64,000 nt of DNA from Branchiostoma floridae (lineage: Eukaryota > Chordata > Leptocardii > Amphioxiformes > Branchiostomatidae): assembly GCF_000003815.2 (NCBI RefSeq), contig NC_049992.1, positions 15,175,525-15,239,524 of the forward strand, read 5' to 3'. Both the position numbers and the translations under genes were made by a program. Positions 22,150-64,000 of this stretch are shown in pieces. The notes beneath the pieces are model-generated. The model saw nothing but the letters and a program-made list of their open reading frames with translations, was not told the origin of the DNA and searched no databases. The stretch's first letter is position 1. Every line of letters starts with the position of its first letter.

Positions 22150-30553
<8,404 letters not shown>

Positions 30554-42700: not shown

Positions 42701-43741
42701 GTGGTTACAATTGTTTATTTACCCCTGACATCACAAGGCATGCAGCCCCCCTTTCGTCCAGCCGACAGTGTGGGGGTGAGTGGGGTAGTGACTTCACAGA
42801 CAAGGGCGTCTTCTCCATCGACTGTGGCGGGATCTGGGGCCGGTATGTCGGGGTTAGCCTGCCTGGAGCACAGCGAACCCTCACGCTGTGTGAAGTCCAG
42901 GTGTTTGCAGGTAAGGGTTGTAAAGGTGGTATCTCACTGCACTTGGGGCACCGGTGTGGCACTGCGGGGTTCGAAACATTACTCAATGAATTTCAGAGAT
43001 AGGGCCACACCAATTTAATTTATTGGTTCACGGATTCGCTCGCTCCTATTTTTTGGAAAAAAAAATAAAAATAAAAATTACCACTCAGCAAATTTTCACC
43101 ATTAATGAAACCATTCACCAACTTTCTGGTGTAGCAAACATAAAAACTGACACTACTTTTGTAATTTGCAATGAACAGGTGCTGTTACTGTACAGTAATA
43201 GTGTTTTTGTACTTTTTTCAAGCTGAAAACTTTTTATTCTTTATGTTTTGGATTAGCCCTTACCTTTACCCCAACCATTTTACAATTTTTATTTTTATTT
43301 CTATATCGCCCTCTCGCTCCATATTTTTTATGAAAAAATCCGTGAACCAAGAAATTAAATTGGTGTGGCCTAAAGAACAAATTTTCTTAAGTGTATTTTG
43401 TTGTCATCTATACTTTTACGTATTACGCACTATCTGAATTATAAAATAGATAGAGATACCACCTTGATACAGGGAGAATGCTTTCTGGCTGAAATATGTA
43501 ATTTTTTGTAAACTCCATTATTTTAAATCCATTCTCTTCATCTTCCATAGTACATCTCCATATACGAATAGTGATGAATTTTGTTATGAATTAATTACAA
43601 AAGCTTGTGTTTCATGTAATTTGTAATACAGCAAAAAACATTTATGACTATTTTCTCTTTAGCTCAATAGTTTTTCACAAATCTAACAGAACTTTTGTTT
43701 CTTCAACAGCCAAGAATCCAGAGAAGATTAAGACAGGATAA
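37787..43741 (+). CDS. Secreted F-type (fucose-binding) lectin with N-terminal coiled coil, 6 exons
   Basis: Exons: 37787-37873, 39086-39263, 39560-39643, 41863-42124, 42762-42910, 43710-43741. All phases match and total 792 nt, giving 263 aa and a stop. Exon 1 encodes a signal peptide (VVWAGLFLSCAVSMVSTAPA). Exons 2-3 (residues 30-116) are a charged heptad-rich coiled coil (MAQKHNSELKTKIKALEKQQ; IVRDLKKKIERME), likely to oligomerise the protein. Exons 4-5 (residues about 117-254) form an F-type lectin domain: NLARYKPTEQSSTAYNGF, AVDG, SCTH, PWWYVDL, IYNRQECCSERI and a closing GRYVGV...LCEVQVFA. Compared with eel fucolectin, the fucose-contacting H157, R185 and R192 and the vicinal CC are kept, but the usual RxD is RxE (E187). 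A role as a fucose-recognition or innate-immune lectin is known for the family and inferred here. A pyrimidine-rich acceptor just before the ATG (TTTTTTCCAG) suggests a 5' UTR intron. Confidence 0.92.
39742..39780. repeat. (TTTC)n microsatellite
   Basis: About nine tandem TTTC units in the lectin intron between exons 3 and 4, at the left edge of the longer tandem repeats that follow. Confidence 0.9.
39790..40400. repeat. Degenerate tandem repeat, roughly 180-bp unit
   Basis: About three or four diverged copies, each with a GACCTGAAATTTGGCACA-like block, a CAGTATAACGAAATGCTTA-like block, a TTTTTGGTCATTTT block and ACTTTTGGCTCCTGTACC. It lies in the lectin intron between exons 3 and 4 and is non-coding. 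Confidence 0.7.
40590..41290. repeat. Degenerate tandem repeat, roughly 120-150-bp unit
   Basis: About five copies of a unit with GGAAGAGTCCATTCTTACAC, GGAGGGGG, a T-rich stretch, AAATTCAT-TTTGGAC and TATTTTTGGACTGGTCTA. It follows the previous array in the same lectin intron. The units look unrelated to those of the first array. Confidence 0.75.
42436..42768. repeat. Duplicated splice-acceptor region (two diverged copies of about 130 bp)
   Basis: Copy 1 (about 42436-42564) and copy 2 (about 42641-42768) share TATGCTTCTAGAATACGTA / GATGCTTTTAAAATACGTA, TTACAATGG(T)TCATTTACCCCTG, and the exact end CCCCCTTTCGTCCAGCCGACAG. In copy 2, TTTCGTCCAG is the acceptor of lectin exon 5. Copy 1 has the same acceptor sequence, but what follows (TTATAACTTATACGG) is not the lectin frame. 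Confidence 0.75.
42924..43464. mobile_element. MITE, (A)GGTGGTATCTCACTGCA family, copy 4, interrupted
   Basis: Left end AGGTGGTATCTCACTGCACT and right end GAGATACCACCT. The family interior is split by another element at 43003-43370, and the GTGCCGCAGTGAACG part near the right end is missing. It starts 13 bases after the lectin exon 5 donor. Confidence 0.8.
43003..43370. mobile_element. Nested MITE with GGCCACACCAATTTAAT ends and TA target
   Basis: Inverted ends GGGCCACACCAATTTAATTT / AAATTAAATTGGTGTGGCC, extending about 36 bp inward through GGTTCACGG. It is flanked by TA on both sides, and removing it restores the sequence seen in the other three host copies. A related end (GGCCACCCCAATTTAATTGG) occurs at about 63475. 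Confidence 0.8.
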
Positions 43742-45236: not shown

Positions 45237-48200
45237 TTACTCAATTTCCACATTTTCCTTGTCGGAGAAGAGTTCGTACTTGGATGTTAGCCTGATCGGG
45301 CGCTGTACGGTTTTGGTCAGCCCCAGCCGCGCCATCTGCTTCTGTTGCACGAGAACGCGTGGGTTCTCGTCGTTCCTGGTTGTCAGGGGCGACCGCGGCA
45401 GGTTCCCAGTAGCGGTGAACAGGACCTTCCTGTTGTTGGGATGGATTTTAACCGGCTTTTCTGCTGGCTTTACAGGTTCTGAAATGAGAAGGAATAGAAA
45501 CATCAGTCATGATAAGGGGTGAGTGCTGGTTAGCCTCCATTGCAGACTCTGATCTTGAAAATGGGGCAAAACTACCTTCCATTGCAAACTCCCTTTCTCA
45601 GCAAACTCTCTTTCCCAGCATAAGAGAACTTAGCCAACGTTGACCACCCTCACACTCAGGGTTGACAATCGCGGCAAAGCCTAACAATATCACCCCTGAC
45701 AACTCAGCCACAGAATTCGGTTATTAGGGGCGTGGCTTCTAACCAACTGTCAGCCCATCGGAGAGATGGCTTTTTGTTGTCGAAAGCTCGGAAAGGCGGC
45801 ATAAAAGGCGACTCATTAATATTCAGGAGCAAGATAACAGTACCGGCATAACGTTTCACAGTACTCTCAGCGTCCAGATGTCTTTATTTAGATACCAAAT
45901 TTAACAGTTGTCGGTTCTGTGGGTATAGGTAACCACGGCATCAACGTATACCGACCTAGCATATGAATAAAAAAAACATTACAGTCACGCAAAGATAAAC
46001 AGATCTTTGTGCACGCCGTGCCGTACCATGCGTACGCTGTTTGTTCAAAACTTGCAATCCGGTCATTGATTGGCCTGCGACAAATCAGGCAAGCTCATTA
46101 ATATTCATAAGCAAGGCGCCCCTAATAACCGAATTCTGTGGCTGAGTTGTCAGGGGTGATATCGTTAGGCTTTGCCGCGATTGTCAACCCTGAGTGTGAG
46201 GGTGACGTTGACAAGCACGAACCAGTGTCCTGTTTGGAGCCTGCAACGGAGGCTAGGTACCTGTACAGAAAACTCAGGTACAGCCCCGTACAGGTATGAT
46301 CCAGAGGATCAGGATCAAATGACTGTCAACTCTCCTCTACTTCACTCATTATTTTCTTGGGCCATTAAACCCCAAGACATGTGAATGCCTGCCAGTAAAT
46401 TCTGCTCATTTTCAAGTTGAATAAGAGGAGTTTTGAGACGACTTTGGTCCCCTTTGGGTAGAAGAATGTTGTGATAGGGTATCTTGCCCAGCGGTGAATA
46501 TTACTGGTAAACTTACTTTACCCATTAGAATAAGACTACTACATAGAAATATGGAATCATATGGACAAGAAGCACAATGGCACTCAGCCACTCACAAATA
46601 AAACTAAGCAAATCAGTTCAAAAAGCACACTCCTTTGTTAGTACCGTAGCATGGTGCAAATGCAATTCAAGCCACACATAGGTGAACTGTTGCCCTTAGA
46701 TTTGAATATTTCACATCGTCATGCTCATGGTAAATTACAGTCAACATTCCTGGCTTCTGAAACTTCAAAAATGCCAACTACACCTCAATCAGAAACAGTG
46801 TCAGATGTTACTGGTGGTGCAGAATGCTTGCAGCTTTGCTTCAAGTACAAGATGAAAGCTCAGTGGTATTACTAGTAGCAGAATAAAAGATTAAAGTACT
46901 GTTACGGTGGTGTGAGTTATTTCAAGCTGATGCCAGGCCACTCCAACTCCAAGGGTAGCTGCCACAAAGGAAAGACTTACTGAACATGCCATGATTACCC
47001 CACCCCCACTTCTGCTTGGAGGTTATTTTCCGACCTTTGGCCTTTAGAAGCCTGGTGTCCTCCTGTGTGGTGCAGCCGTCTGTCAGATTGTCCATCATGT
47101 CACACAGCTCACGCTCATACTGTGGGGTCTGCCGGGATCCTCTGCACAGGACAAAGGGTACATATTGGAACATGGTGTTTCACAAAGACTTACATTTAGT
47201 AAGTCCACAAGAATGTTTTCTCAGACTTTAGCATTTGCTATTGAAACTCTGTAGTACTACATACAGTAGCAATACAATGGAAACTGTGATGGTACATGGA
47301 GTCATGAATTTGCGATGGAGACGTCACCTAAAAAAAAAAAAACTTTGATAACACTTCAACAATACCTACACTGCTGGTGCTACTGTAACATCTTTCCTTA
47401 CAGCTACTTCACAAGCAGCAATGAAGATTTTGTGTGTCACTCATAAGATCCTACCTGCCACTCCCCCGACCGGGCGGGGTCACCTGGATGTCTGGCATCT
47501 GGGGCGAGGCATCGGGGTCATCGTCAAGGAGACGGCAGACAGAGGAAGTGCTGAGGTCAAGGGATAGTTCAGAGTCATAGCACCACGGCTCTGGGAGGGC
47601 GATAGAAATTAGTCCATGAAAAATACAGTATAAAATTAATGTACTTTCTTCTAATGCTACCATGTGCAATAATGTGCAAAGCAAATTTTCCTCAAAAATG
47701 AGGAACTTCTTTAGCCTGGGAACCATCTGGATAGTAGTTCGCTCTTATGTTCACTTCTGCTACCCTTCTCATCAAGACTTGCACTCGTATGCAAACCTTT
47801 TGGTGATGTCAGTTAATGAGCGAATTAAGGAATGGGTTCTGTCTGGTTGTAGAGCACTCGTTTGATGACAACAGGCATTCCATGAGTGGACGTAGGGCGT
47901 TTAAATTTGAGTGTTGAAGCGCCTGTTCGAGCAAGCGCTTGAACCCATTCCTTTATTCACTGATGCGTAGGGACTAGGCGTGGGTACCGGTACACCGTAC
48001 CGGTACAAACCCGATTTTTCTTATTGGATTGGTCCAAAAAAACTGGACTGTCCGGACCTCTTCCAAAATTCGGACGATTCCAAATGTTAGACTTAGAGAT
48101 GTCAAGGTTCCCAGATGAGAAAGCAGAGAAGGGACTGTATATTGTGTATGATCAAAGTCAGAGCGAGAAGCAACTGTATAAAGTGTATAATAATCGGTGG

Positions 48201-48860
48201 AGCGAGCTACTATCCCGGATGGTAACCAGGCTAGAACCTCTTTAGGTGGGAAAGACATACCTCTGTACTCTTCGTCAGATCCCTTTATTGGTGTCCGGTC
48301 AACTTCTCTTGTGGGTGAACGTGGGTCTACAAAAATTGCTGTTGGCTTTTCAACCTTGTGGGGGAAGAAAAAAAGCAATAGAAATTGAGATGCTCCATCA
48401 TCCATAGATATAGGTAGACTAGGTACATTTGTAATGTTGATTTTTCTAGCACATAAACTCCAGGCAAATTGCAACTGGCACATGACACTGCTTCTAGCTG
48501 ATCATGTTCTTAAGGCCACCTAAGCAATATTAGCCCGAGTCAGGGTTGTAGAACTTCAATTATCAAAGTTTAATTTTTGGGGCACTTTTCTAAGTAATAA
48601 GATGAAGTAACTACATATGTAGTGCAACTTAGATATCAATTTCGTACAGACTGCCCTATCTAGTTTCTTTCCACTTTTAATGCTCTAATATTGCTTAGGT
48701 CGCCTTTAACTTGTTTAAGTACTAGTACCTGAATAGGTGTTCTGTCGATGCCAGATGTTGGTGACCTGGGGTCAAACTGGAGAACTTTGCGTTGTTCAGG
48801 GGGTGTACTACTGGTGGAGTCATCCAGACTGGCCCAGCTCTTACTCTCAAAGGCACCCAT
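45237..48860 (-). CDS. CDCA3: Cell division cycle-associated protein 3 (Tome-1) homologue, 5 coding exons
   Basis: Exons on minus: 48860-48729, 48354-48261, 47590-47455, 47141-46981, 45478-45237. All phases match and total 765 nt, giving 254 aa (human CDCA3 is 268). Two copies of the family repeat are present, one per exon: FDPRSPTSGIDRTPIQ (29-44) and VDPRSPTREVDRTPIK (53-68). These are S/T-P sites of the kind phosphorylated by CDKs. RSPLTT (203-208) and a C-terminal KEN box in SDKENVEIE (248-250) match the human C-terminus in order and position. The known protein (trigger of mitotic entry) promotes mitotic entry through SCF-dependent Wee1 loss and is degraded by APC/C-Cdh1; that function is assumed here, not shown. 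MG at the N-terminus could be myristoylated, a guess. An acceptor (TTCCTCCAACAG) 19 bases upstream of the ATG shows the start-codon exon has a 5' UTR intron upstream. Confidence 0.9.
45531..46255. mobile_element. Long inverted-repeat DNA element, TAGCCTCC ends
   Basis: A 725-bp element beginning TAGCCTCCATTGCAG and ending CTGCAACGGAGGCTA. Arms of over 100 bp are mirrored (left CTCACACTCAGGGTTGACAA and CACAGAATTCGGTTATTAGG; right their inverses). It has no transposase. It lies in the last CDCA3 intron. A gap-truncated relative is at 34583-34757. Confidence 0.75.
47975..48060. mobile_element. Partial hAT-like element end, GGGTACCGGTAC family
   Basis: TAGGCGTGGGTACCGGTACA matches the left end of the elements at 3033 and 32281, followed by TTATTGGATTGGTCC. 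No matching right end was found, so the right limit is arbitrary. It lies in a CDCA3 intron. Confidence 0.55.
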
Positions 48861-48884
48861 GTCTATTCTTCAAAATGTGCTCTG

Positions 48885-49903
48885 TTGGAGGAAAAGAAAT
48901 CATTACAAATGCGAGCGGGTTGGTGCTGGGAATCGAGGAGAGCCTCGAAGCGGCTTTGGAGAGACGCTACTTGACGCTCGTGGGAGCGCTGCATCTCTCG
49001 CATTTCCTGGCGGTGGGAGGCCAGGATGGCCTGTATGTCCGTCTCCGCTGGGACGGGAGAGGGATCGCTGACCTGGCGGATATGAGTAGGAGGTGGTGGG
49101 GAGGGGTGTTGTGACGGTGTGTGTGATTTAGCAAGGTCCTCGAAAAACTGAAGGGTCATGCTAGCTTCGTGCAGGGTTTGGGGCGTAGAACGCTTTACCT
49201 CCCATGCCATTTGTTTGTCTTGAATTTTGCCTACGAACTCCCGCAGTCCCTAAAGATCCCTAGTGTTCTGATCGGCCTGGGGGTGAACTTTGGCGATTAG
49301 CCGGCGGATTCTGACCTCCAGAGACTGCGGCGTTTCACCCGGGTTGCGAGACAACGTGAAAAGTTCAGATTCAAAATGAGTGGGGTCGTTGGGTCTACTA
49401 TACATTTCCCTCAGGAAGTCAAGGGCGAGGTCGCAGGGTCCGTTCTTGATGGACGCCGCGGCCGTGTTGAAGGTCTGAAGGGCCCCACCCGATAGGTGAC
49501 GAATGAGTACAGTTTTGCTCAGGGGGTCGTCCCACTCGCCATAGGACCTGTCAGCGTTGAACTGAATTTCAAACTCTTCCCAAGTTATGTCGGAGACACC
49601 GTCAAACCTGCACATCAGTTTAGGGATAAACCTAGGGCGAGTGGTACGGGGGGCGTCTTCAAACTGCCCTGAGACTGGTGAGGGGGGGAATAGGTCCCGG
49701 GGAGTCGACGTTAAGGAGGGCCTGTTGTGTGAAGCCGGTGTGCGCTGGGGAGCGGGCCGGGGGGTCGCGGCTGCTCCGGTAGCGAGCGGGGTCCCCCGAG
49801 CACGGCCCCGGCCCCTGCCTCGGCCGCGTCCGTTGCCATGGAGACCAAAATTGAGTTGGACCACTTGGTCATCAGGTAACGTGTTGTCGTGTGCAGTGGC
49901 CAT
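48885..49903 (-). pseudogene. gag: Ty3/gypsy-like gag, interrupted by a stop, no pol
   Basis: On minus, a frame opens at 49903 with an RGRGRGRG-type basic stretch, then a retrotransposon gag domain: WEEFEIQF, LSGGALQTF, LREMYSRPND, RNPGETPQSLEVRIRRL. A stop codon at 49250-49252 interrupts it, after which the same frame reopens (KIQDKQMAWEV...) with a coiled region (REMQRSHERQVASLQSRFEA) to about 48885. There is no zinc knuckle, protease or reverse transcriptase; instead the CDCA3 splice acceptor follows. It is a 3'-truncated copy. Confidence 0.75.
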
Positions 49904-51109
49904 GTTACGGAGGCAAGGGGCGAGAACAGACGAGGGTAGATATGCAGATTTGGATAGAAGAGTGGGAAAATGTGCTGAGTTTACAAGTTTGATTGGAGTG
50001 TCGAGTCAAAACAAGGGACGGCAGGCCACACAGGGCGCCAAGGAAAAATTTATATCAGAAAGAGAGATGACACGAAAAAACGGCAATAACAAGGCTTTCT
50101 CTACAGCAGTGCAATTTAGAAGACAAAAGGCGTCTGCCAAACAATGAACAAATGCGACACGAAAAATTTGCAGTAACAGTGCTTTGTCGGCAGAGCGGGC
50201 CTAATTAGACCCTGGCTGTGACAATAGGTGCGATGACTAGAGACAAGGTGTAAAAAACTTACAAAGCGGGACGGCGCCAGGGAGAACTTGTGAATAACCG
50301 AAAATAAATTTACGCAAAAGTGTCAAGTCGCACGATGAAAAGCCACGTTCAGACTTGTTAAAACTGACCGGCGCCAGTGGAGAGACGGCCGCCCAGATCA
50401 AAAGAAAACCTAATTGAGGCGTGAAATGGCCAAATAACCATGAACAAAAAGTCGAGTTTCCTTTGGGAGATATTTGGAAGCAAACCCAGCGAAAGTTACT
50501 TTATAACGAAGGAAGTTTATAACGAATGGCTAGATTTAACGTTGGGAAACAAATGGACACTTTGCCGAGTGGAATCGAAACTTTTTGGGTCAATTTGGGC
50601 TGGGAATTTGAAATCAGGTAATGTGATAGGCCACAACGTGGAGAATCGGAAGTTTTAGATGCAAGAGCCAAATATTTTTTGAAGGAAATTGTATCAGATA
50701 TCGGCGTTTTACGATGCACTTGGACTCTGGAGTTAGGACGTGAATTTGACGGATAAAATTCGCACCAGGACGGTCAGGGAGCTTTGCAAAACGTGGCCAA
50801 GACGATTAGACAATTTTCGTGCGCTTCATTCAAAAGTACCGGAGTATCAACGTGAACTTTAACAGAGCGGTAGAATGGATTTCAACAATTTGGCGGAGAA
50901 CCGGATCGATTGTACAACAGAAGTTTGGTGCAACAACACACGTGTTTTGGGGGGATGTGACACACAAGAACAAAGGAAAGTTTTACTGTGCGTCACCCTA
51001 GCGCAAAACGGAACGCGACTTATACTTCAAACTCAAGGTACGAAGTTTACAAAAACCGAGTCGTAGTATTTTGATCACAGAGCAAAACTGTATCCACTAG
51101 TGGGGACCA
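49904..51109 (-). mobile_element. LTR retrotransposon leader with primer-binding site
   Basis: About 1.2 kb between the LTR and gag on minus. Immediately after the LTR is TGGTCCCCACTAG, which starts with the TGG expected of a tRNA primer-binding site (51109 downward). The rest has no convincing frame. Confidence 0.55.
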
Positions 51110-51564
51110 TGTAACATTTGGTCTTAGTGGTAGGATTTGGGCATTTACCTATACGTCAAGGTGACGCATCTATGCTATGCACTCTCACCAATATAGCCAA
51201 GGACCAGGGTTCAGTGTACAGTTTGATGTGATCTTTATTACTACGACCGATGGTACACAGTTTAAGCAAGTGAACGGAGGTAATGATAAAGACTGGCTTA
51301 ATACAAATAATACAAGATAAGATACCTGGACAGATGCGGGTGGATGATATTAACTAACCGGTTACGTAACTACGGCGGCGGAAGATGCGGTTGTCCTTGT
51401 CCCTGAGTCTGCTTCTCGTCTAACTAGCGCGTACCGCGTCTTATATTACATCATGGAGGCGGAGCTTACGCGAGCGCTGCGGGGCGTGGCCTAGTTGACG
51501 TCAGGGCGCGCCCATGATCACGTGCTCTCACCACGTGACCCCTGGGCCGCCCAACGTAATAACA
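51110..51564 (-). repeat. 5' LTR of the gypsy-like element
   Basis: A 455-bp stretch on minus begins TGTTATTACGTTGGGC and ends AAATGTTACA (TG...CA). In order it has two E-boxes (CACGTG at about 51518 and 51532), a GC-rich upstream part, a TATA-like ATATAAGACGCG (about 51437-51449) and a poly(A) signal AATAAAG (about 51233), a proper U3-R-U5 layout. No second LTR is in the window. Confidence 0.65.
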
Positions 51565-52252
51565 GACTTGCTACATGGCACTCATGTCACTCAACATTTC
51601 AAGGCAGATCAAATCATCTGCGCATGCGTATATCACCGCGTCGGTACACAGTTTAATTTTAACGTTAAACGATCAAGCAAAATAGAAGATTTCGCGCGTT
51701 CTTGGTCTAAGCTTTTCCCGGGTGTACGATCATCGTAACTGATTAGCTTTTGGGTTACAGATCTAGGTAACACAAACCTTACAAAAAGCTGTTAGGGGTG
51801 AACGGAAAGGGGTGCATATGTGGAAAGGGTTATGGGGGTTACCGATACGAAAAATATGCACGATATTCTGATTGAACAGTGTATCGCCAGCTACTCAGGG
51901 CTATGCTGGAAGGGTACGGGATTTATCAGGGGCTGTGATAATATCAGCAAGTCAAACTGGAAGTCTGTTTATATGCAAAGATCGCTTGTGAACATACGAG
52001 CTACTAAAAAATTTTAACCCAGTTTTCCTGCACATGAATGAATGCCCAAACAAGGTCCCGATCGATCGACTATCTCTCTCTAAACTGTCCACAGCAAGTT
52101 GCATTTAATCTGTTGGGTAAAAGAAAATATAAACTCTATCAAACTCACCTAGGATATCGCAGTAAATACACGTTTTGCCTGCTTTGTTGTACAAAACACA
52201 ATGGACGTTGACGATGTTGTATGAAAACAATTTTTTAAAGTTACCGCCTCCG

Positions 52253-52409
52253 CCAATCACGGACCGGTACCTGGGCGTTTCCATACAATAACCTGATTGG
52301 CTTATCTGTACATCACATGATCAGTACCGTCCAATAGAAGATCTCGTAACAGCCATAACAATTTCTGTGCTAGAAACCACGCGAGATATCTCGAGACTAA
52401 GATTTCGAA
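52253..52409. promoter_or_regulatory. Candidate bidirectional cell-cycle promoter (3 CCAAT boxes and a CHR-like site)
   Basis: CCAAT at 52253-52257 (plus), 52296-52300 (minus, ATTGG) and 52331-52335 (plus), spaced about 43 and 35 bases. TTCGAA, a CHR-like core, is at 52404-52409. NF-Y sites at such spacing with a downstream CHR are typical of G2/M genes. It lies 200-360 bases upstream of the USP5 ATG. Function is inferred. Confidence 0.35.
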
Positions 52410-52612
52410 AGCCTGAACATGCAACGAAAAATAATGATCAAATTGTAGAAATTGCTCTCGAAGAGGACGCTTAATCTACAGCTTTATTATATGTAACATC
52501 AACTTGATTTTATATGTACGAAAATCGATGATAAAGTTGACATTCATGACCATATGAGTCACAGCTTCTCTATATTTAGTGGTTTCGATGCGGTTGAGGT
52601 CTGCCATCCAAG

Positions 52613-55600
52613 ATGTCGGCGTTAGAAACTCTGTACGGCTATCTCCCCTGCGTCAAAGTTCCCCGGGGTGGGGAGAAGATATACAAGGATGAATGCATAT
52701 ACTGCTACGACACACCGGTAAGACAAAGACTCTTCTTCTATTTGAACCTCGTCCCATCTTTCTCGTTGAATTCTATCTCGAGTTATCAGGTCAGATCTGC
52801 GGCGACTTTGTTGGTGGTATTCTGAGCATGGCATGATTTGCAGTTGAATGGGCTATGGGGAGGGATGACATGAGACTGCAGAATTTACCAGATGCATGTG
52901 ATGTGGTCGTAACACAAACCTTATCACACTTCAGTAAAATAGAAATATGCTAGATGATTCCGTCCCTTGTCACTAAATCTAAATGCTAGGATACAGTGAA
53001 AACATCACATCTCTCTATCATTCTATGACATACACCTGGTGATTATTATACACAACTGTCATAAACTAAAAGAACAATTGCTCCAACCATCCTTGAAATA
53101 TCTTCATTAGAGGATTTTATTGTTTATGAACATAAGATTCTCAACATAATGATAATCCTGCTCAGAAGAAATCCAGCTCAGAAGAAATATTACAATCTGG
53201 CTTGACAAAAAAGGAATTTAGAGTCACTGAATATCATAGTATGTATGTTTCCAGTTGCTCAGTAAGAATTATAATGAAGATATATACATGATGTGTAAAT
53301 AATAGTGATAAATTCTGTCCTTTGTCACTTACTGAATTGAATTGAAACAATAACTGAACCTTTGGATTTTCTGAAAAGGAGCAGAAGGCTTTTCAATGTA
53401 GAAATAGAATAACATCAATGATCAAACATGACTGATTGGTTGCTGTTGTTGACCACAGCTCATCTGAATTGACTGAAACTCTTTTAAAGTTTGATTTCTG
53501 ATAAGAACACTAATTCAACACTGTACAACTGAGAACAAAACAAGAAAACACAAATTTAGATACATGCTACATGTGAATAATACTTATCATGCATTGTGAC
53601 TTTGTCCTGCATACAGTGTAACATGTTACATAGTGGTAACATTGACAGAAAATGAAGACTAAGAATATTTTTATTGGTAATGAATGTGCAACAATAGATG
53701 GGCTGGTTAAGCCTGGTTTATTAGTGTGTGTGTGTGTTCATGTTTGTAGGTGTGGTCACTCGATCTCTAACACAGATGCTAGATGATCCAGCGTTTAGGC
53801 ATTCCCAGTGTGACATTAGGAATCAGAGGAATGGGGAAGTGGGAGGGTGATAGGTTGTCCTGCAGATATGTGTCTCAATGGGAGATAAAAATAGCTCCAT
53901 GTGTGGAGAACACCATGCCCAATATGGCTGACTCCAGTCTAGAGGGACCGTGCAAAATGCCATATTGGTTGTCTCGTTCAACAGAGATAACGTAACGTAA
54001 ACGATTCTAATCGCCTTGTCTCCACAGGAAGATTTTATCTTTACAATTACAGAGATGCAGAAATGAAGAGGAATTTGGTGTGGTGTCATAAAGAATTGTT
54101 GTGAACTGACATTTTTAAAATGATTCATGGTATAAATGTACATGAGTTGTCTTAGAAATGAAATGTCACAATTGTCACTGAAACAAGAGATTCTGTGAGA
54201 AAGGGCCAAGCCCAGGGCATAGAAATGTTCTCCAAACTCAGTTTTATTACATAGACTAGCTCCTTAGCTCTAGGGCTAACATCTCCCCAAGGAAAGTTTA
54301 CCACAGTTAGACGGTTAGACCCTAACCCAGGGCCTATGGTAAATTTCTTTTAGGGCATGTTAGTCCTGGAGCCTAGGAGCAGTGTAGGCCCTTAAAACAG
54401 TCTGGTATCCAGGCTAACAGCAACATTATACTTGTCAGTGTTTGATGTGTGCCATGGTACTTCTAAATTAGCAGATGACCTCTACATTTTCTTCTCCCTG
54501 AGCTTTGTTTGTAGAGATGTAACTCTGCTACATACTCTGTGGCATTTTGGCCGACCTACAAAAAACAATCATAGACATAGCTGTGTCCTGACTGTGGCTT
54601 AGACTCTTGTTACAAAGGAATCTTTGCGCAGCAAGAAACGTCCCACCTGCTTGAAGTGTTGTGACATAATCTGTACTATTCTTATTTTGCCATCATGTCT
54701 CCACTGCTTCCTAATAATTTGCACCTATATAGTATATACTGTAATAGATTCCAAAATTCTTGAAACGAGCATAAAGCCACAGTAAGCGGGTTTGATCACT
54801 TAGAATAAGTTAGATTTTGCTGCCTGAACATATAACCTTTCAAAGCTGTATATTGTTTGGCACCAGACTTAAAGGTTCCATTCCTAGAATAAGTACACCA
54901 CATGGGCAGACATTCCTATTCCAACCATTCTACACTTGGACTCCTGCCTAGGGCACTGTTTAATACAGGAAACATTTTCCCAGATTGTCGGCCTTGAGTG
55001 TGAGGCAGCATTCCGTTTATAAATCACACACACACTTATAACGTATGTCATTATGTCACCCCCAACTCCCCAAGATATTTTTGGAGTGATGAAATTGAAA
55101 GGCTATATCTATTTATGGCAAGGCCAGACCAACTGTCTGGAGTATTGAGCTTGTGTTGCCTAGCAACACAGTATGGTTGCTAAGCAACAGGGCTTGGTCC
55201 AGTCATGGAGATGGTTCTGTGTGAGATAGATTACAAGCTGACCCACTTCCTGAGTTTCTGATGTCATGTGTCTGTGTCTGGGGATGGCTTTATCCTGGCC
55301 AATGTCATGGTCATCTTTCAGGCCTATGAGTACCAAATAGGGTCATTCTAAGCTTACACTAAGGCCTAGGAAAAAAATTGTGTGTTTCCTGTTTCCTTAC
55401 CTACCCTACAAAAACCTTCAACCTTTTTTTGGGTGGGCAATGGAGTCACATAGTATATACTGTTTCTCCTATCTAATGAAGGATAAATCTAAGCTATTCA
55501 CAACATTCAAGTTTGACAATTAAAGAGCAGGGCTCGAAATTCATTTTGGGGATTGGGTGCACTGGTGCACCCAGCTTTAAAAATTGGGTGCACCAAAAAA

Positions 55601-58600
55601 ATTTTGGGTGCACCACTTAACTTTAAGTAATAACCTAATAATAAAACTTATTTACAAGCTATCAAATTCTTAAACAAGTACCATGAGAGACATTTTTATT
55701 ATCTTTCTAACACTTAGATGTTAAGAATATGATGTCTACTAGTATACATGTACTTTGATATCTTTACATACATAAACCTAAGAAAATATTTGGGTGCACC
55801 TGGGTGCACATGCACCCAGTATTTCGAGCCCTGAAGAGTGACACATACTTCTACTTAGTGTACTCGTGCATTTCAGTTTACTTTGCTCAACTGTATTGTA
55901 ATATATCACACTAATCGTTTGGCCAGCCTAAAGATTACTACAAGAAAAAAAAGATAATCCCTTGGGCCTACACTACCTAATTTTTCAGGACTGAAACACC
56001 TCTCAAATAGAAGTACCCCCTGGAATAAAAGTACCCCCCGGACAAATCTTCAAAATCAAATAAAAGTACCCCCTGGAATAAAAGTACCCCCCGGAAAAAT
56101 ACCAAATTGACATGTAAACTGTGTCCATGCTACTTCAGTCCAAGAGAAGATGATAAGCAGGTATGCTCTTTTTATTTATTTATGCCTCAGTACCATATCA
56201 GTTAATTGTATAAATGATGAACAGAATAATTCCTATGTTATTGCACATATTTTCTTTATCTGAGTGTCACACCATCAACAAAGATTAAAATAAAAGCAAA
56301 AAATGAATGAAAATAAAAATAGAAGACATAAAAAAAGAAGTTTATTTTATGATCATTGTTACAAAATAAAATTTTGAAGAAACATTCCAACTTAGTAGAA
56401 TACCTTCTTCACCACTTGTTGTATTTTCAATGTTGTTGAAACCAAGGAGGTCATAGACACTGCCCCCTATCGAGATATAACGGTACTGCAGCAAATATGT
56501 CAATATCTCGCGCATTACCGCGAGATTTGGCGTGAGTTGATGAATCCAACATGGCGGATGTTTTCGAGCTGATTGAACGCTGTGCTTTATTTTGGAAGGA
56601 TTTTTTCGTTGCTGGAACATTAAAACAAGTTGACTACGGGTGAAAAGTTGTGGAAAAGTATTGGTAACTTTTTAATTTGTTTGGTTGGTGGTTAATTTCT
56701 GTGTTTTGATAGAGAATTTACGGAAGTGAGTGACTGTGTGTGTAGCATGTGACCTCGATGTTTGGCTATGTTTTCGTCTTTGTTCAGCGCAAATTTCAAG
56801 ATTTATGGAAGGTTAAAGATGGTCTAAAACGAAAAGGATACATTTTTTATGAGTCCAGTACCGAATCACTTGGGTTTCGGTATTTTTGGACCTGAACCGA
56901 AACGTTTTTGCAAGTCCAGAACCGGTCCTGCGTACCGGTACGCATCCCTAGGATGTTTGGGTCATAGCGCTAGCGGCAGGGAAATCCGCGCTGCCTCGTC
57001 CGAAAAATAGTGAATTTGAAGCGAAAATACCGCGGAAATATGGGCAGAAAATACCAAAATTTCAATATTTTTGGGGTCCCTAGTTAGTTAAGAAAGCCCC
57101 AATTTGAAAAAAAAAATAAACGTACCGTCTAAAATAAGGACGTACCGGGTGGATTTTGAGGCGGAAAAAAATAAACGTACCGGTACGTTTATTTGAGAGG
57201 TGAGAGTAAGCCTAAGATACTTCTGACTCTGGCTATTTAATTTGTTGGCTTCTTAATCACACTGAAGGGAATAAAATAGCTTTGGATTCACTAATTACAG
57301 GGCTAGGCAACAGAAAGAAATCAATGTGATGAACAAAACATTTATGACCACAAAGAATGGATGGTGAACCAAACAATCCATTTTGCATTGGCCTATTTAT
57401 AATGTATTGTACCAGGAAGTAAATGTAACTGTAAAGATATACATTTTTTCATATTTATTAATCACAATGTTTTTGTTATTTCAGGAGTCGGAGGGTGGTC
57501 TGTTTGTGTGCCTGAAGTCGTACATGGGCCTGTGTCACCTGCATGTACAGAAATTCTACGAGAAGTTCCCAGAGAACCCCATCTACCTGCACCTGAAGAG
57601 GACCAAACTAGAGGTACATCAGTCCTAATAGAACAAGAAAAACTTTATTGCATGACAATTGTACACGATACAATGTATAGCAACAACTATTACACAAAGT
57701 ACAAAATAGAGGTATAGAATAAAGCTTAACATCCTAGTTAACATTCAAATAAGGGCTAACATAATTCTTTGATATAGTATTGATCATGGCATTGTGTTAG
57801 AATAAATTTCTGTAAGCTAATACAGCAGGTATAGGCAGCAGACAGCCTCTGGAACTAGAAGCCTCAAGTTTGATTCCGGCTGTGTCGCTCACCTGACATG
57901 CACGCTACTGGAAAGGGTTTCATTCCTCGGGACGGGACGTTACCCCATTGTCCACTGTTCATTGTGCTTGTCGAAAAGAGCTAGGGGAATTTTTCCGGCA
58001 CAATGATCTCTTCTCTGTCATGACCAGTGGAAGACTAGTGCTTCAGTGAGCTAAAACTGGATTGAGGTCTAGATCACTTTCCCAGTGATGCATCTGAATC
58101 TTGAAAACTTATTAAGCTTGAGAACTGAATATTTTCCTTTTTAGCTTACTTTAATTTGTGACAGCCAATGTCATTCCTTTCCTACAGATCTCTGGTGCAG
58201 CAGGGGGTGGGGAAGCTGAGGACCCTCCAGCCAAGAAACCAACAAGGCTGGCCATTGGTAAGGATCAAAACATAGAACAGAAATATCCACATTTCAATAT
58301 ATAGGGATAACATCTAAATGATTCAATGAATGGTGTAATGTGTGGACAATAAATCAAGGTAAACAATACATTTAAGAAGGTTAGACATCCAGGTAAACAA
58401 TGTCCAAATACAATTCAATCTCTACAAACTAGATAAAAACAGATTGACTTTGTTTGATTTTATTTTCTAGTGACGCTGAAGAAGAGTGATGGATGTTGTT
58501 TGTTTGTTTGTTTGTTAAACGTCCCGAAGTGAATCTCCGTTTTTATCCAGTTGTAGAGATTGAATTGAATTGAAGTATGGTAAACAATATGATGAAAAAA

Positions 58601-59058
58601 ACTGAATTTAAGGACTGGAATTGTTTACTGTGATCGATTTTTTTGTATTGTAATTTGTATGAAATCTTTACCATCTACCTGTAGGTGTTGAAGGAGGTTT
58701 TGATGTGAGTGAAGAAGGTCGCTATGAGATCCAGGAAGAGATAGCCATCGTGGTGATGCCTGGATACGAGTCCTTCCCATACCCAAGTATAGAGGACACA
58801 CCTGTGCAGGTGAGCAGAACAAAGATGTAAAACATACCATCATCTCTGCAATAAAATTCCCCCTCCCCAACTGAAAGTACCCATTGGGCATAACTTCAGA
58901 ATCTAATAAAAGCACAATCCAGAATAAAAGTACTTGGTCCAGTTAGCCTGTGTTTACGCAATCTCTTGCTCTCTTGCAAAATTTGGTTGTACTTTCAAGA
59001 ATGTTTTTAGCAAATTTGATTTCTATTTAGGTCTTTGATGAAGCAGATTTGTGTACTT

Positions 59059-59111
<53 letters not shown>

Positions 59112-62100
59112 ATGCAGGGCTCAAAATACACATACTTAACTTGCAATTTGCTCGTAATTTTTGAGATTTGCACGTAAAAATATTCTGAACTTGCAATCTT
59201 GCATGTTGAAAATACCTGGCCTATAGTAAAAATACTGAAGCCACAGTGCCTTTGTTTGGCTAACGGGGATTGTCACCGGTCGTCAGAAGGTGTTATAAAT
59301 AATCAAATTTGGCTTTGCTGCAAACTTACATGCTTATTATGTGGATATCTTGCCAAAATTTGAAGTTCTGTCTATATTTTCATGCGCCGATTTCTGTCCG
59401 TCAAAAGTGACAGAATGAGCAAAATTCTCATCCAAAAGTCCACCAAAGTACAGAATGATGGATGCTGGCTAGAACACTGCTGTATAGACTAGTGGTATTT
59501 TGCATGTAAATTTTTCTAATTGCACATTAAATTTTTGCCAACTTGCAATTTTGCATGTAGCAAAAAAAAAGTATTTCGACCCCTGGTATGGTAAATCAAT
59601 GTTTTAAATGCAAGCCATATTTACTGCAGAAATTTACTGCATATGAATGCACATCTTGTTAGTTTGAATTTTTTCACTGTATAAACTAACTAACTAACCA
59701 ACAACCATTGACAAATACATGATCTCTTTGGTCCTTCAGCAATGCAGAAGTAACAGCGTTTGTCTTTTGTTTACATTCCTTGACAGATCCAGTTGGCGAT
59801 AGAAGGTATCCTGAAGTCCTCAGGTGCTGACAAGCAGTCTGCAGTGGAGGCCTGGGATGGGGAAGTCAGACAAGTTAGCAAGTAAGTCCCAGTCATTGTG
59901 TACCTAAATAATGATTTTCTGGGTATGGCACTGGTACTGGGTCGGGGCTCGAAATACCCACTTGCCCACTTAAAAATGCAACCACATCTTGCTTTGCGAA
60001 ACTTATTTTAAACCCAGGTTGCACACTGAGCAACCTAAAATTTTGCTGTTGGAACACTGCTTTTTCCCCACCTACATGCATAAGCTTTTGTATTTATTTT
60101 TTGATAACATAAAACATATTACATACATTGTAGTTACATATAACTGGAAGAAAAGATAATGGATAAGTAGCTGATTTGAAGAAAGTAACAATTTGAAAGT
60201 GGGGCAACCTGAAATGTTTATGGCGCAACCTGGCTTTTGACTCAGGTTGCCACTTGGACAACCTGGCTGAAAAAAGTATTTCGGGCCCTGTGGGTACAGG
60301 TACACATCCCTGAGAGAATTTACACCTTTTTTTTTTACTTATTGGTCACCACATAACAAGGCCTGAAGGCCACTCAAGCTTACGGGTTACACGATTACGT
60401 TACGAGGGCTGCTCGGGAGATTCCCTACCCTTTTTTGGCCGGAATGGTTTGATCCGCTCATGTTCGCACGTGCGGCGGGTTCTTTGATATACAAAAGCTA
60501 CTTATGACAGAGTTGGATGTAACAGTAACTTCTAAGAAGATCCTTTGCCTATATTTCTTCTGATTGAGTTTGATCCACGTTTTGTGCCTTTCAGACATGC
60601 AGATAAGCTAGAGCAGCTGAATAATGGAGTCAAGGTGCCTCCCAAGTAAGTCATGGAACATTGTTTGTACTATTGTTTGTAACCTTAAGTATACCAGGGC
60701 CATATGTGTTGCCATGGTGACTTGTACAATCTGTAGCATCCAATGGCAAACACATAGTGATTGCTTGTGTTGTTGTTTGTTTTGTTCTTTTTGTATACTG
60801 TAAATGCAGAAATGTTCGCGGTGGATTAATGTTTGCGGTTTTTGCGGCGGCTGCTTCACCGCGAATTTAAAACCACCGCAAACATTTTTCCATAATAGTA
60901 AGAGACTGCAGTGCATGGTGCTACCGCAAAATCAAAACCACCGCAAAAAGTCCATTTTACCGCTAGCGCGAAATTAAATCCCCGCGAACTTAAATGCATT
61001 TACAGTATCTGGTAAACCGCCTTATGGCATAACATGCCAGGTTTGTACTGAACAGTACAACTTACTACAAGCTTCATATCTGGACAGATTTATTTGAGCC
61101 ACTCACACCGTGAAAGACCCCTACTCTTTCTGGTAAGTGGTTTGGGTTCTTTAACATGCTCGAGGTGTGACACTCCTCAAACACAGGACCTCCATGTAAT
61201 CTCCTATCCAAGGGACGCCCCTAGCCGGAGATAGGTGCTAATTTTCACCTGAGTGAAGTGAGGAAAGCTGTGTTAACTGCCTTTCACAAGGACACAAGAT
61301 GAGACACATCAGCGGATTCTATAAGAGTTGTTGGTTACATAAAGGTTAAAACCTTCCAATTTGACGTTTTTATTCCTTGACAAAGATATTTCTTGTTCTC
61401 TACCAACAGAGGCTGGAAGTGTTCTAGGTGTGACCTAGTAGAAAACCTGTGGATGAACTTGACAGATGGAAGCATCTCCTGTGGACGGAGGTACTTTGAT
61501 GGGTCGGGAGGGAACAACCATGCCGTAGACCACTTCAGAGAGACAGGATTTCCTCTGGCTGTCAAGCTGGGGACCATCACGCCTACCGGAGCAGGTTGGA
61601 ACTAGTCTAAATTAATACTTTGTATCATTGCAACACATTGAATAAAGAGGCTCTTTTTACACAACCACAGCTTTAATTTCTCAGATGTTACTGTGACCAT
61701 CTGTCACCTTCTTCAGGGCAATATGCTGCAGCAATATGTGTGGTAGCAATATGCATTTCTGCAGCACAATGTGAACCAGTCATAATTGCCCTGAAGAAGG
61801 TGACAGAAAGTCACCGAAACGTTGCTGAAAATATAATTATGGTTATATAAAAAGAGGCTGAGCCGCTCTTTATTCAGTGTTATACCAACGGGATGAACTA
61901 TTTACGTAGGTTAGAACACCATTTACAAAAAGGATGTTCTGTCTTGGTATCTAGATGGCAAATTAAACATATAGGCTGTGAGGTAGAAAGTGGGAAGTGA
62001 TCATTGTCCTGTAGTTCCACCAAGAACTGGTAGGTGGTGCTCATGGATGACCATTGTGCTTTTCTTGTCAGATGTTTACTCCTACGATGAGGATGACATG

Positions 62101-63424
62101 GTGGAAGACCCTCACCTGGCCAGACACCTGGCACACTTTGGTATCAACATGATGAGCATGGAGAAGGTAGGTGGGCTTAGGGGTTCATGTCTGGCCTTAT
62201 TTGTAATGCTTAAAGTTGTGATAGAAATGTAATACTTGTGGGAAGAATATAATCTCTCCTCCTCCGTTCATCACATTAGGTCTTGTGACCAAGATTCTTG
62301 TTTCTTCTGGCATTCCGTATAGTTGTTGATAAAGTAATGCACAGGCAGAATCCTGTCATACAGTACTGTAAATGCAGAAATGTTTGCGGTGGATTAATGT
62401 TCGTGGTTTTCGCGGTGACCACTTTACTGCAAACTTAAAACCACCGCGAACATTTTTCTATTATGGTATTAGATTGCAGTCTATGGTGTTACCGCGAACT
62501 TAAATCCACCGCGAAAAGTCCCTTTTCCCGCTACCACGAAATTAAATCCTCGCGAACTTAAATGCATTTACAGTACAATACATAAAGTATTCTTTTGATT
62601 GTAGCAGGGTTCTAGCCAGCATCTGTCCTTCCGTTCTTTGACAGAATTTTGCTGCTGGGGGCGACAAAAAAATTTGCCCTGCTGTCCTTTGTGACGGACA
62701 AAAATCTGCATATAAAGATATTACTGTAATTCACTTTGTGTTCACGGTACTAAACTTTAACGGGCTGAGAAAATTTAACTTGTTCTCGGAACTAAATGTT
62801 CACTGTTGTGGCAAGTGCACATGAAAAAAGTCTGTGAATTATTTGTTATCAGTAATGATAAGTTCACGTTACAGTCATCACCGTGAAAACCGTGAACATA
62901 ACAGTACATTGAAAAAGTCAGGAATGATTGAACTAAGCTTAATCTACTAGCAAAATTTGCCCCTCAAAATAAAGGAATATAGCAATTTAGAGGGTCTAGT
63001 TTTAAAAAATTTTCCCAGCGAGCATACCACCGGACCCCTCTAGGACCATTACGCCTTTGACAGGATTTTCATTCAAAATCCAGAGGATGGACAAAAATTT
63101 CAGGCTGGCTAGAACACTGGACTGTAAATAGTTTGGAGTTTGTGACACAGTATTGTTCATGCATCTGTGTGTATGGTATTCTTTCCATCTTAACATTTGT
63201 CTATTATTTCTATAAACAACCACAACCCAGACCGACAAGACAATGACGGAGCTTGAAATCGACATTAACCAGAGGGTGGGGGAATGGGCGACCATCCAGG
63301 AGTCGGACAAACAGTTGAAGCCCATGTACGGTCCAGGGTACACCGGGATGAAGAACATGGGAAACAGCTGTTATCTCAACTCCGTCATGCAGGTCATCTT
63401 CACACTACCAGACTTCCGGAAAAG
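52613..63424 (+). CDS. USP5: Ubiquitin carboxyl-terminal hydrolase 5 (isopeptidase T), first 9 coding exons, 3'-partial
   Basis: Exons: 52613-52717, 57485-57613, 58188-58257, 58685-58809, 59787-59881, 60595-60645, 61410-61594, 62072-62166, 63231-63424. All phases agree and encode about 349 aa collinear with human USP5. In order: the N-terminal cryptic zinc-finger region ([37 protein letters not shown]), then the UBP zinc finger with ligands C196, C199, C216 and H229 ([22 protein letters not shown]), then [13 protein letters not shown] and [12 protein letters not shown], then the Cys box [19 protein letters not shown] with catalytic C332 (human C335). The enzyme disassembles free polyubiquitin by gripping the free C-terminal Gly-Gly with the zinc finger. 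The His box and UBA domains lie beyond the right edge. The exon 7 donor is a weak GTTGGA. Intron 1 is 4.8 kb. Confidence 0.96.
54250..54390. repeat. Short inverted-repeat element
   Basis: AGCTCCTTAGCTCTAGGGCT and its imperfect inverse (AGTCCTGGAGCCTAGGAGC) flank about 90 bases in USP5 intron 1. It may be a small MITE. Confidence 0.45.
55529..55833. mobile_element. hAT-like element, CAGGGCTCGAAAT family, copy B
   Basis: Ends CAGGGCTCGAAATTCATTTT and CCAGTATTTCGAGCCCTG with a perfect 5-bp target duplication AAGAG (55524-55528 and 55834-55838). Nearly the same interior as the copy at 27694-28021, with extra GGGTGCACC repeats. It lies in USP5 intron 1. Confidence 0.9.
55997..57202. mobile_element. 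1.2-kb DNA element with CACCTCTCAAATA inverted ends
   Basis: Ends CACCTCTCAAATAGAAGTACC and, inverted, CACCTCTCAAATAAACGTACC. The left part has GAATAAAAGTACCCCCCGGA direct repeats; the right part contains an embedded GGTACCGGTAC-type hAT end (about 56870-56950). A 92-codon minus frame at 56342-56620 shows no known domain. It lies in USP5 intron 1. Confidence 0.6.
57840..58010 (+). mobile_element. Degenerate SINE-like fragment
   Basis: AGTTTGATTCC resembles a Pol III B box, and the following TCATTCCTCGGGACGGGACG resembles the AGGACGT-type body of other SINEs here. No clear A box. It lies in USP5 intron 2. Confidence 0.35.
59063..59107. repeat. (TA)n microsatellite
   Basis: About 22 TA units directly left of the transposon at 59115, in USP5 intron 4. 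Confidence 0.9.
59115..59585. mobile_element. hAT-like element, CAGGGCTCGAAAT family, copy C
   Basis: Ends CAGGGCTCAAAATACACATA and GTATTTCGACCCCTG with a perfect 5-bp duplication GTATG (59110-59114, 59586-59590). The interior has TTGCAATTTTGCATG-type repeats and a GGCTAGAACACTG end of another family at about 59468. It lies in USP5 intron 4. Confidence 0.85.
59943..60290. mobile_element. hAT-like element, CAGGGCTCGAAAT family, copy D
   Basis: Ends CGGGGCTCGAAATACCCACT and GTATTTCGGGCCCTG with a perfect 5-bp duplication TGGGT (59938-59942, 60291-60295). The interior is rich in CAACCTGG/CAGGTTGC inverted words. It lies in USP5 intron 5. Confidence 0.85.
60395..60492 (-). mobile_element. SINE body fragment
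   Basis: GAGGGCTGCTCGGGAGATTC, TTGGCCGGAATGGTTTGATC and GCGGCGGGTTCTTT match the SINE at 15945-16035. Both ends are truncated. It lies in USP5 intron 5. Confidence 0.7.
60796..61006. mobile_element. MITE, TACTGTAAATGCAGAAATG family, copy 1
   Basis: Ends TACTGTAAATGCAGAAATGT and TTAAATGCATTTACAGTA, 211 bp, with several CCACCGCAAA/GCGGTGG inverted words inside. Collinear with 62364-62575. It lies in USP5 intron 6. Confidence 0.85.
61125..61320 (-). mobile_element. SINE fragment
   Basis: GGTTCTTTAACATGCTCGAG, ACACAGGACCTCCATGTAAT and TGAGTGAAGTGAGGAAAG match the right part of the SINE at 16030-16150. The tRNA-like head is degraded (CAGCGGATTCTATAAG). It lies in USP5 intron 6. Confidence 0.65.
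62364..62575. mobile_element. MITE, TACTGTAAATGCAGAAATG family, copy 2
   Basis: Ends TACTGTAAATGCAGAAATGT and CTTAAATGCATTTACAGTA, 212 bp, collinear with 60796-61006. It lies in USP5 intron 8. Confidence 0.85.
62605..63119. mobile_element. hAT-like element, CAGGGTTCTAGCC family, with nested MITE
   Basis: Ends CAGGGTTCTAGCCAGCATCT and GGCTGGCTAGAACACTG. Flanks GATTGTAG (62597-62604) and GACTGTAA (63120-63127) agree at 6 of 8 bases. It contains the complete TACTGTAATTCAC MITE at 62722-62906. It lies in USP5 intron 8. Confidence 0.7.
62722..62906. mobile_element. MITE, TACTGTAATTCAC family, copy 2 (nested)
   Basis: 185 bp, nearly identical to 1507-1692, with the same ends (TACTGTAATTCACTTTG; GTGAACATAACAGTA). 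It sits inside the element at 62605-63119. Confidence 0.8.
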
Positions 63425-64000
63425 GTTAGCAAATGGTCCATTCGTGTTGTTGTGTTTCTTTTAGTTTTATTTTAGGCCACCCCAATTTAATTGGCTGCTT
63501 CTTGGTTGCCTGTCCATTTTTTGCGTTTCGTCGCCCAATGTATTGGGTTTTACCTTCAGTGGTTGCTTCGGTGCATGGATGCATGCTTGGTGCTTGGTTT
63601 GGTTCAACACGACCGCATGCAACTGCTACAACTGTATGTTCGGAAATACCATTGCATTGTGGTTTCGGACTTCAATATCCTGGAAAATGGCCATATAACA
63701 TCTATTCCACAAGATTGCACAAGAACAAAAAATGATTTTATCAAGAAAGCGACCGAAAATCGACATAAATAAGACTATGTAGTGAGGTTAAAGAATAATG
63801 TACACTCAGATACAATAGACGTGACAACTTAGCTCAATCGGTAAAGTCATACGCCTTCGGATCCGAAAGGTCCTGGTTCGACACCGAGAGTGGATTTTTT
63901 TCTTTTATAGATATTCTATTTATTTATTGATATTATATTTTTATATATCATTTTTTTAAATTTTAGTATTCATTTCATGTATGCAAGGCCTTTGTCTTAT
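63425..64000. other. Start of USP5 intron 9; no further exon seen
   Basis: A GT donor follows exon 9 (AG|GTTAGC). The next USP5 exon is not within the window. The sequence holds a possible MITE end at 63475 (GGCCACCCCAATTTAATTGG), a tRNA-like stretch at 63824-63895, and AT-rich sequence. Confidence 0.6.
63824..63895 (+). repeat. tRNA-like sequence with T-run, probably a tRNA-derived element
   Basis: TTAGCTCAATCGGTA resembles an A box / D arm and GGTTCGACACC a B box / T arm, at tRNA spacing, followed by a T-run like a Pol III terminator. However, the acceptor stem and anticodon stem do not pair, so a functional tRNA is unlikely. Confidence 0.35.

What the first reader, a model, noticed from the sequence alone, without database searches (positions are those of the whole stretch)
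45237..63424. CDCA3 and USP5 are head-to-head, as in human 12p13
A complete CDCA3 homologue (minus) and USP5 (plus) are divergent neighbours with no protein gene between them except a retrotransposon fragment. In human they are also adjacent and divergent. If the species is an invertebrate, this is a pairing kept since early in chordate history, and it suggests a shared promoter linking a mitotic-entry factor with polyubiquitin recycling. It also extends CDCA3, known mainly from vertebrates, outside them.
Basis: partly seen in the sequence, partly recalled or inferred. Interest (0 to 1): 0.75.

Follow-up and report, generated by a model that had tools for sequence, protein, structure and literature searches.

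The report
Back-to-back CDCA3 and USP5 genes
A gene for entering cell division and a gene for recycling ubiquitin lie back to back in this animal, as they are believed to in humans, and a stretch resembling a cell-division switch lies between them, so a shared control region may be what has kept them together.

Summary
Minus strand: an intact CDCA3 gene with five coding exons (254 aa, ATG 48860, stop 45237). Plus strand: the first nine coding exons of USP5 (349 aa, ATG 52613), running off the window. No assembly gap separates them. Both genes are named at the CD4 locus from mammals to fish in print; human adjacency and orientation are recalled. CDCA3's first coding exon follows a strong splice acceptor (48881), next to a gag-like remnant, so its promoter probably lies beyond the remnant. 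There, 280-380 bp from the USP5 ATG, are three CCAAT boxes, then a CDE-N4-CHR element in CDCA3 orientation like those of G2/M genes (the only strict match in 64 kb), then a fair splice donor at 52149. I infer a compact bidirectional promoter at about 52.2-52.6 kb, with the remnant inside CDCA3's 5'UTR intron. A functional link between the two proteins is not supported; bidirectional promoters are common in amphioxus. CDCA3 outside vertebrates is not new; it is annotated in shrimp. No animal genome could be searched: species, conservation in relatives and promoter function are untested. New member of a known kind.

The parts
48729..48860 (-). CDCA3 coding exon 1 (ATG, first DPRSP..RTPIQ repeat)
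   Evidence: in-frame TGA 12 nt upstream
48261..48354 (-). CDCA3 coding exon 2 (second DPRSP..RTPIK repeat)
47455..47590 (-). CDCA3 coding exon 3
46981..47141 (-). CDCA3 coding exon 4
45237..45478 (-). CDCA3 coding exon 5 with D-box RSPL and KEN box, stop TAA
   Evidence: motif definitions from PMC9926468
48861..48881 (-). predicted 5'UTR part of CDCA3 coding exon 1, behind acceptor tttcttttcctccaacag|AG
   Evidence: acceptor ties for best of 163 AG sites scanned in the gap
52149..52233 (-). predicted non-coding CDCA3 exon 1, ending at donor CTAG|GTGAGT; start not determined, no ATG in it
   Evidence: donor ranks 2nd of 235 GT sites scanned in the gap, but 77 donors at least as good exist in the window
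52234..52248 (-). CDE-N4-CHR element GGCGG-TAAC-TTTAAA in CDCA3 orientation
   Evidence: only strict match in the window, one of two matches to the broad pattern
52253..52335 (.). three CCAAT boxes (52253 +, 52296 -, 52331 +), spacings 43 and 35 bp
52336..52612 (+). USP5 proximal upstream region / 5'UTR, start site not determined
52613..52717 (+). USP5 coding exon 1
57485..57613 (+). USP5 coding exon 2
58188..58257 (+). USP5 coding exon 3
58685..58809 (+). USP5 coding exon 4
59787..59881 (+). USP5 coding exon 5
60595..60645 (+). USP5 coding exon 6
61410..61594 (+). USP5 coding exon 7 (zf-UBP zinc finger)
62072..62166 (+). USP5 coding exon 8
63231..63424 (+). USP5 coding exon 9 (GNSCYLNS box); gene continues beyond the window
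48912..49903 (-). gag-like reading frame with one stop at 49250, taken as a retroelement remnant; the low edge is set by eye
   Evidence: by eye; Pfam and PDB do not confirm

Best explanation
CDCA3 and USP5 form an old head-to-head pair held together by one compact bidirectional promoter at about 52.2-52.6 kb. On the CDCA3 side it is a G2/M-type promoter: three CCAAT boxes (NF-Y) followed by a CDE-N4-CHR element (E2F/MuvB, DREAM), which would silence CDCA3 in resting cells and switch it on for mitosis. The other side would drive USP5 as a housekeeping gene. CDCA3 transcription would start at about 52.2 kb, make a short non-coding exon ending at 52149, and splice over a 5'UTR intron of about 3.3 kb to 48881. 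A retroelement has landed in that intron, so the 3.75 kb between the two ATGs is misleading. What keeps the pair together is shared promoter DNA, not a shared protein pathway. Shown: both gene models, their orientation, and the motifs as sequence. Inferred: transcription starts, the 5'UTR exon, factor binding, ancestry of the pair.
For: Both gene models are consistent exon by exon, and USP5 is a firm match. With CHR defined as TTYRAA (PMC4974476) and a GC-only 5-mer 4 nt before it, 7 of 250 CHR sites in the window qualify; only the one at 52239 on the CDCA3 strand has 3 CCAAT boxes in the preceding 130 nt (the other six have 0 to 2). The strict CDE-CHR pattern occurs once and is expected 0.14 times in the window and 0.018 times in the gap, both strands. 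TTTAAA is a known CHR variant (Ccnb1), and human CDCA3 is in a table of 210 potential DREAM-CHR targets (PMC4705690, passages). The acceptor at 48881 ties for first of 163 and the donor at 52149 is second of 235 in the gap, with no ATG in the predicted leader. By eye, the gag-like sequence comes to about 30 nt from that acceptor, leaving little room for a host promoter beside the coding exon. A recalled GNB1 query finds nothing significant in the 45 kb on the CDCA3 side, where human has GNB3 (order in PMC12077880), so on that side only the pair seems kept. CDCA3, USP5 and GNB3 are named among genes conserved at the CD4 locus between mammals and fish (PMC4470515).
Against: No transcript, CAGE or chromatin data. 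The motif was noticed first and the patterns were written afterwards. The broad CDE-CHR pattern has a second match at 60474 and, with three CCAAT boxes, appeared once in 3000 simulated gaps. The CDE does not fit the SGCGCS code of PMC4974476. A different CCAAT triple at 63.5 kb is tighter. In the MKI67 promoter CCAAT boxes set only overall activity, not cell-cycle timing (PMC8629999). Donors at least as good as 52149 number 77 in the window, 0.6 per kb per strand, so about two are expected in the gap; the weight matrices were trained only on these two genes. A second acceptor-like site at 52109 scores the same as 48881. CpG o/e at 52101-52500 is 1.16-1.30 against 0.70 for the window, but GC is only 0.38-0.40 and other stretches of the gap reach 1.5, so there is no clear CpG island. 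No other animal genome was examined.
Confidence: 0.63

Rival explanations
1. CDCA3 in this genome is driven by a retroelement LTR: an LTR-like promoter on the minus strand (E-boxes, CRE, TATA at 51445, AATAAA at 51239) starts a transcript through the gag leader that splices into CDCA3 at 48881. The ancestral shared promoter is then bypassed.
For: Ordered promoter-like elements on the CDCA3 strand between the remnant and USP5; the top-scoring donor of the gap lies in this stretch, at 51359.
Against: No second LTR or other copy was found in the window, element ends are unresolved, Pfam and PDB do not recognise the frame, and the G2/M signature lies upstream of it.
Confidence: 0.12
2. The two genes are neighbours by ordinary retention of old gene order with separate promoters; the CCAAT/CDE/CHR cluster is chance or serves USP5 or a non-coding transcript.
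For: Gene order can persist without regulatory cause; the predicted factors are not demonstrated; USP5's own start is unknown; donors as good as the one used are common (77 in the window).
Against: The strict CDE-CHR pattern is expected 0.018 times in the gap; with three CCAAT boxes it appeared in 0 of 3000 simulated gaps, and the broad pattern once.
Confidence: 0.2
3. Adjacency arose independently in the two lineages or by contig misassembly.
For: Linkage in relatives could not be tested here; only one assembly was seen.
Against: No N run in the interval; the CDCA3-oriented G2/M signature lies next to USP5; independent meeting of the same two genes is unlikely a priori.
Confidence: 0.05

Closest known systems
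Ancestral chordate bidirectional promoters (372 putative cases; amphioxus functional genomics 2018, PMC6292497, passages read)
   Same: Two protein genes 5' to 5', with an inferred promoter distance well under 1 kb, one of them of housekeeping type
   Different: Whether this pair is on their list is unknown (supplements not readable here); no CAGE for this window; one partner is a G2/M gene
Human 12p13 GNB3-CDCA3-USP5-TPI1 region (GNB3, CDCA3, TPI1 order from PMC12077880, passages; USP5's place and the orientations recalled)
   Same: CDCA3 and USP5 neighbours; divergent orientation in human is recalled
   Different: No GNB homologue detected in the window; TPI1 would lie beyond USP5, off the window, so it is not informative; ATG-ATG distance here 3753 bp, with a gag-like remnant inside
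CDE/CHR and CCAAT G2/M promoters (PMC4705690, PMC8629999, PMC4974476, passages)
   Same: CCAAT boxes near a CDE-4 nt-CHR tandem
   Different: CHR is the TTTAAA variant; CDE is GGCGG, not SGCGCS; no binding or expression data

Membership tests
CDCA3 (Tome-1) | C-terminal D-box RxxL and KEN box | tested here: met
   RSPL at 203 and KEN at 248 of 254; human at 198 and 258 (PMC9926468)
CDCA3 (Tome-1) | similarity to human CDCA3 along its length | tested here: inconclusive
   Clear only in the N-terminal part with the two DPRSP..RTP repeats (39 of 110 identical); the middle does not align convincingly; human sequence recalled
CDCA3 (Tome-1) | profile match in a curated family library | tested here: inconclusive
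   No Pfam family at E 0.1; whether Pfam holds a CDCA3 model was not checked; NCBIfam, PHROGs and PADLOC not searched
USP5 (isopeptidase T) | variant UBP zinc finger plus UBP zinc finger before a UCH domain | tested here: met
   PF17807, PF02148 and start of PF00443 above cut-off
USP5 (isopeptidase T) | USP5 rather than USP13 | tested here: inconclusive
   Zinc-finger chains: USP5 235.9 and 220.4 bits, USP13 186.3, chains of unequal length; no tree, possibly a pre-duplication gene
USP5 (isopeptidase T) | complete catalytic domain and UBA domains | not testable with these tools
   Gene runs off the window at 64000
Bidirectional promoter | divergent genes with start sites within 1 kb | tested here: inconclusive
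   Divergent: yes. ATGs 3753 bp apart; start sites inferred to be under 0.5 kb apart, not measured
DREAM/MuvB-regulated G2/M promoter | CHR (TTYRAA) with CDE 4 nt upstream and CCAAT boxes | tested here: met
   CDE by GC content and the GGCGG form only, SGCGCS not met
DREAM/MuvB-regulated G2/M promoter | binding of LIN54/E2F4 and G2/M expression | not testable with these tools
   no expression or ChIP data

The most novel reading that the evidence does not exclude
One bidirectional promoter has joined a DREAM/NF-Y-controlled mitotic gene and a housekeeping deubiquitinase since before the vertebrate genome duplications, with the CCAAT/CDE/CHR block itself kept, and it has tolerated a retroelement landing in CDCA3's leader intron because the intron shields the promoter.
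Probability: 0.4. Interest if true: 0.55.

Novelty: new member of a known kind. Interest (0 to 1): 0.42.

Why it matters
If the promoter block is kept in lancelets and vertebrates, it is a natural test of why some gene pairs survive half a billion years: a cell-cycle switch and a housekeeping promoter that cannot be pulled apart. It also gives a precise, mutable element (CHR at 52239-52234) with which to ask how one promoter gives a cell-cycle pattern in one direction and a steady pattern in the other.

Tried and rejected
Own-genome search: the genome search (own, PF00443) failed ten times as busy, so linkage in relatives, copy number and species were not tested. Wider conserved block: tblastn of recalled human GNB1 and TPI1 against the window gave no hit better than E 3.7; TPI1 would lie off the window, so only GNB is informative. 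Retroelement identity: Pfam and PDB gave no match, and no second copy or LTR pair was found in the window. Species by repeats: a weak 5S rRNA-like and a tRNA-like hit and one paper naming BflSINE1 did not settle it. Promoter beside the CDCA3 coding exon: rejected, because the gag-like sequence comes close to the acceptor.

Literature: CDCA3 and USP5 as adjoining words gave 0 papers. Searches of CDCA3 with USP5 or amphioxus (20 of 28 listed), with bidirectional promoter (20 of 29) and with Tome-1 or invertebrate (20 of 48) listed no title on this pair in an invertebrate. Searches (20 of 3,617 listed; 5 of 2,657) say nothing about CDCA3: no listed row holds the word. Irimia et al. 2012 is not held. 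Papers: passages only from PMC9926468, PMC13295535, PMC12077880, PMC4470515, PMC10339062, PMC4705690, PMC8629999, PMC6292497, PMC3747384 and PMC4974476; every other paper was seen only as a search listing.

Full report
What is there. The CDCA3 gene on the minus strand has five coding exons between 48860 and 45237. Every intron between them is GT-AG, the phases run 0, 1, 2, 1, and the frame is open for 254 residues. The protein has two DPRSP..RTPI repeats near its start, an RSPL D-box at 203 and a KEN box at 248. The human protein has its D-box at Arg198 and its KEN box at Lys258 (PMC9926468, passages). Against it, BLASTP without composition correction or masking gives 47 bits, 39 of 110 identical, E=7e-11 for a one-sequence search. 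The Smith-Waterman score of 113 exceeds all 2000 shuffles (maximum 92, mean 44). tblastn of the same query against the window gives a best E of only 0.002. PDB (E 1) and Pfam (E 0.1) show no relative.

USP5 on the plus strand begins at 52613. Nine exons with fitting phases give 349 residues up to 63424, after which the gene leaves the window. The match to the USP5 chain 3ihp has E=1.3e-145; 206 of 341 aligned residues are identical. Both zinc fingers and the start of the UCH domain pass Pfam cut-offs. USP5 zinc-finger chains score above the USP13 one, but no tree was made, so the gene may predate the USP5/USP13 split.

The gap. The interval has no N run; the only one in the window is at 34483-34582. 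The ATGs are 3753 bp apart. The three plus-strand frames of 48001-63001 match only ubiquitin hydrolases in PDB. On the minus strand, from 49903 to about 48912 (edge by eye), runs a gag-like frame with one stop at 49250. Pfam and PDB do not recognise it, so 'retrotransposon' is a judgement by eye. On the same strand, E-boxes at 51537 and 51524, a CRE at 51503, a TATA at 51445 and an AATAAA at 51239 follow in the order of an LTR, but no second LTR was found.

Where the promoter should be. The CDCA3 ATG lies 21 nt behind a strong acceptor that ties for best of 163 AG sites scanned in the gap, and the gag-like sequence comes, by eye, to about 30 nt from it. So CDCA3 probably has a 5'UTR intron and starts on the far side of the remnant. 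There, read in the CDCA3 direction, stand three CCAAT boxes at 52331, 52296 and 52253, then GGCGG-TAAC-TTTAAA at 52248-52234. [quoted passage not shown] A donor CTAG|GTGAGT follows at 52149, second best of 235 GT sites in the gap, and the predicted leader has no ATG. The donor alone is weak evidence: 77 sites at least as good exist in the window, 0.6 per kb per strand.

How surprising is it. With the CHR code TTYRAA (PMC4974476, passages), 250 sites exist on both strands and 7 have a GC-only 5-mer 4 nt upstream. One of these 7 has three CCAAT boxes in the preceding 130 nt, and it is the one described; the other six have 0 to 2. In first-order Markov simulations the strict CDE-CHR pattern is expected 0.14 times per window (150 simulated windows) and 0.018 times per gap (3000 simulated gaps); with three CCAAT boxes it was never seen. 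The broad pattern is expected 0.52 times per window and 0.09 per gap, and with three CCAAT boxes it came up once in 3000 gaps; it matches twice in the real window, here and at 60474. Against this: I saw the motif before I wrote the patterns; the CDE does not fit the SGCGCS code used in PMC4974476; a tighter CCAAT triple exists at 63.5 kb; CCAAT boxes in the MKI67 promoter affect only overall activity (PMC8629999); and the stretch is no CpG island (GC 0.38-0.40, CpG o/e 1.16-1.30 at 52101-52500, with other parts of the gap as high or higher).

What it means. [quoted passage not shown] GNB3, CDCA3 and USP5 are named among genes conserved at the CD4 locus between mammals and fish (PMC4470515, passages). 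The human order includes GNB3, CDCA3, TPI1; USP5 was one of the loci removed from that analysis (PMC12077880, passages). That human CDCA3 and USP5 adjoin and diverge is recalled. A recalled GNB1 query finds nothing significant in the window, so on the CDCA3 side only the pair appears to be kept here, as expected if the shared promoter is what holds it. The USP5 side cannot be judged, because that gene runs off the window. In amphioxus a quarter of neighbouring protein genes sit in bidirectional promoters, and 372 putatively ancestral ones are counted (PMC6292497, passages). This pair is most simply one more, perhaps already listed in a supplement I could not read.

The link between mitotic entry and polyubiquitin recycling is not needed: unrelated genes commonly share promoters. 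CDCA3 outside vertebrates is already annotated, for example in whiteleg shrimp (PMC13295535, passages). The species is not established: the 60% USP5 identity fits a non-vertebrate, by recall of vertebrate values, but no call names the organism.

Limits. No animal genome was searched; the genome search was busy at all ten tries. Transcription starts, factor binding and conservation in relatives are inferences to be tested.

Noticed in passing
window 45645-45732 and 46117-46204: 88-bp inverted repeat, 99% complementary, 384 nt apart, inside the last CDCA3 intron; looks like a MITE.
   Followed up: no
window 52109 (minus): A second acceptor-like site with the same score as the 48881 acceptor, 39 nt after the predicted donor; too close for an ordinary intron, by general knowledge.
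   Followed up: no
window 29576-30550 (plus): Protein kinase domain in one long frame, Pfam Pkinase E=7.5e-60.
   Followed up: partly
window 41835-42999 (plus): F5/8 type C, NedA-like galactose-binding domain, E=3.5e-13, the nearest recognised domain beyond CDCA3's 3' end.
   Followed up: partly
window 3375-3728 (minus): TNF-receptor cysteine-rich repeat, E=5.3e-11.
   Followed up: partly
window 26484-26599 (minus): 5S rRNA-like match just at the Rfam gathering score (38.3 against 38), perhaps a 5S-derived SINE.
   Followed up: no
window 16180-16236 (minus): tRNA-like match of 31.6 bits that ARAGORN does not call, perhaps a tRNA-derived SINE.
   Followed up: no
window 17029-17748: Long tandem array giving repetitive open frames on both strands.
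   Followed up: no
window 63482-63546: The tightest CCAAT clusters of the window (two overlapping triples, spans 52 and 53 nt), in the USP5 intron after exon 9.
   Followed up: no
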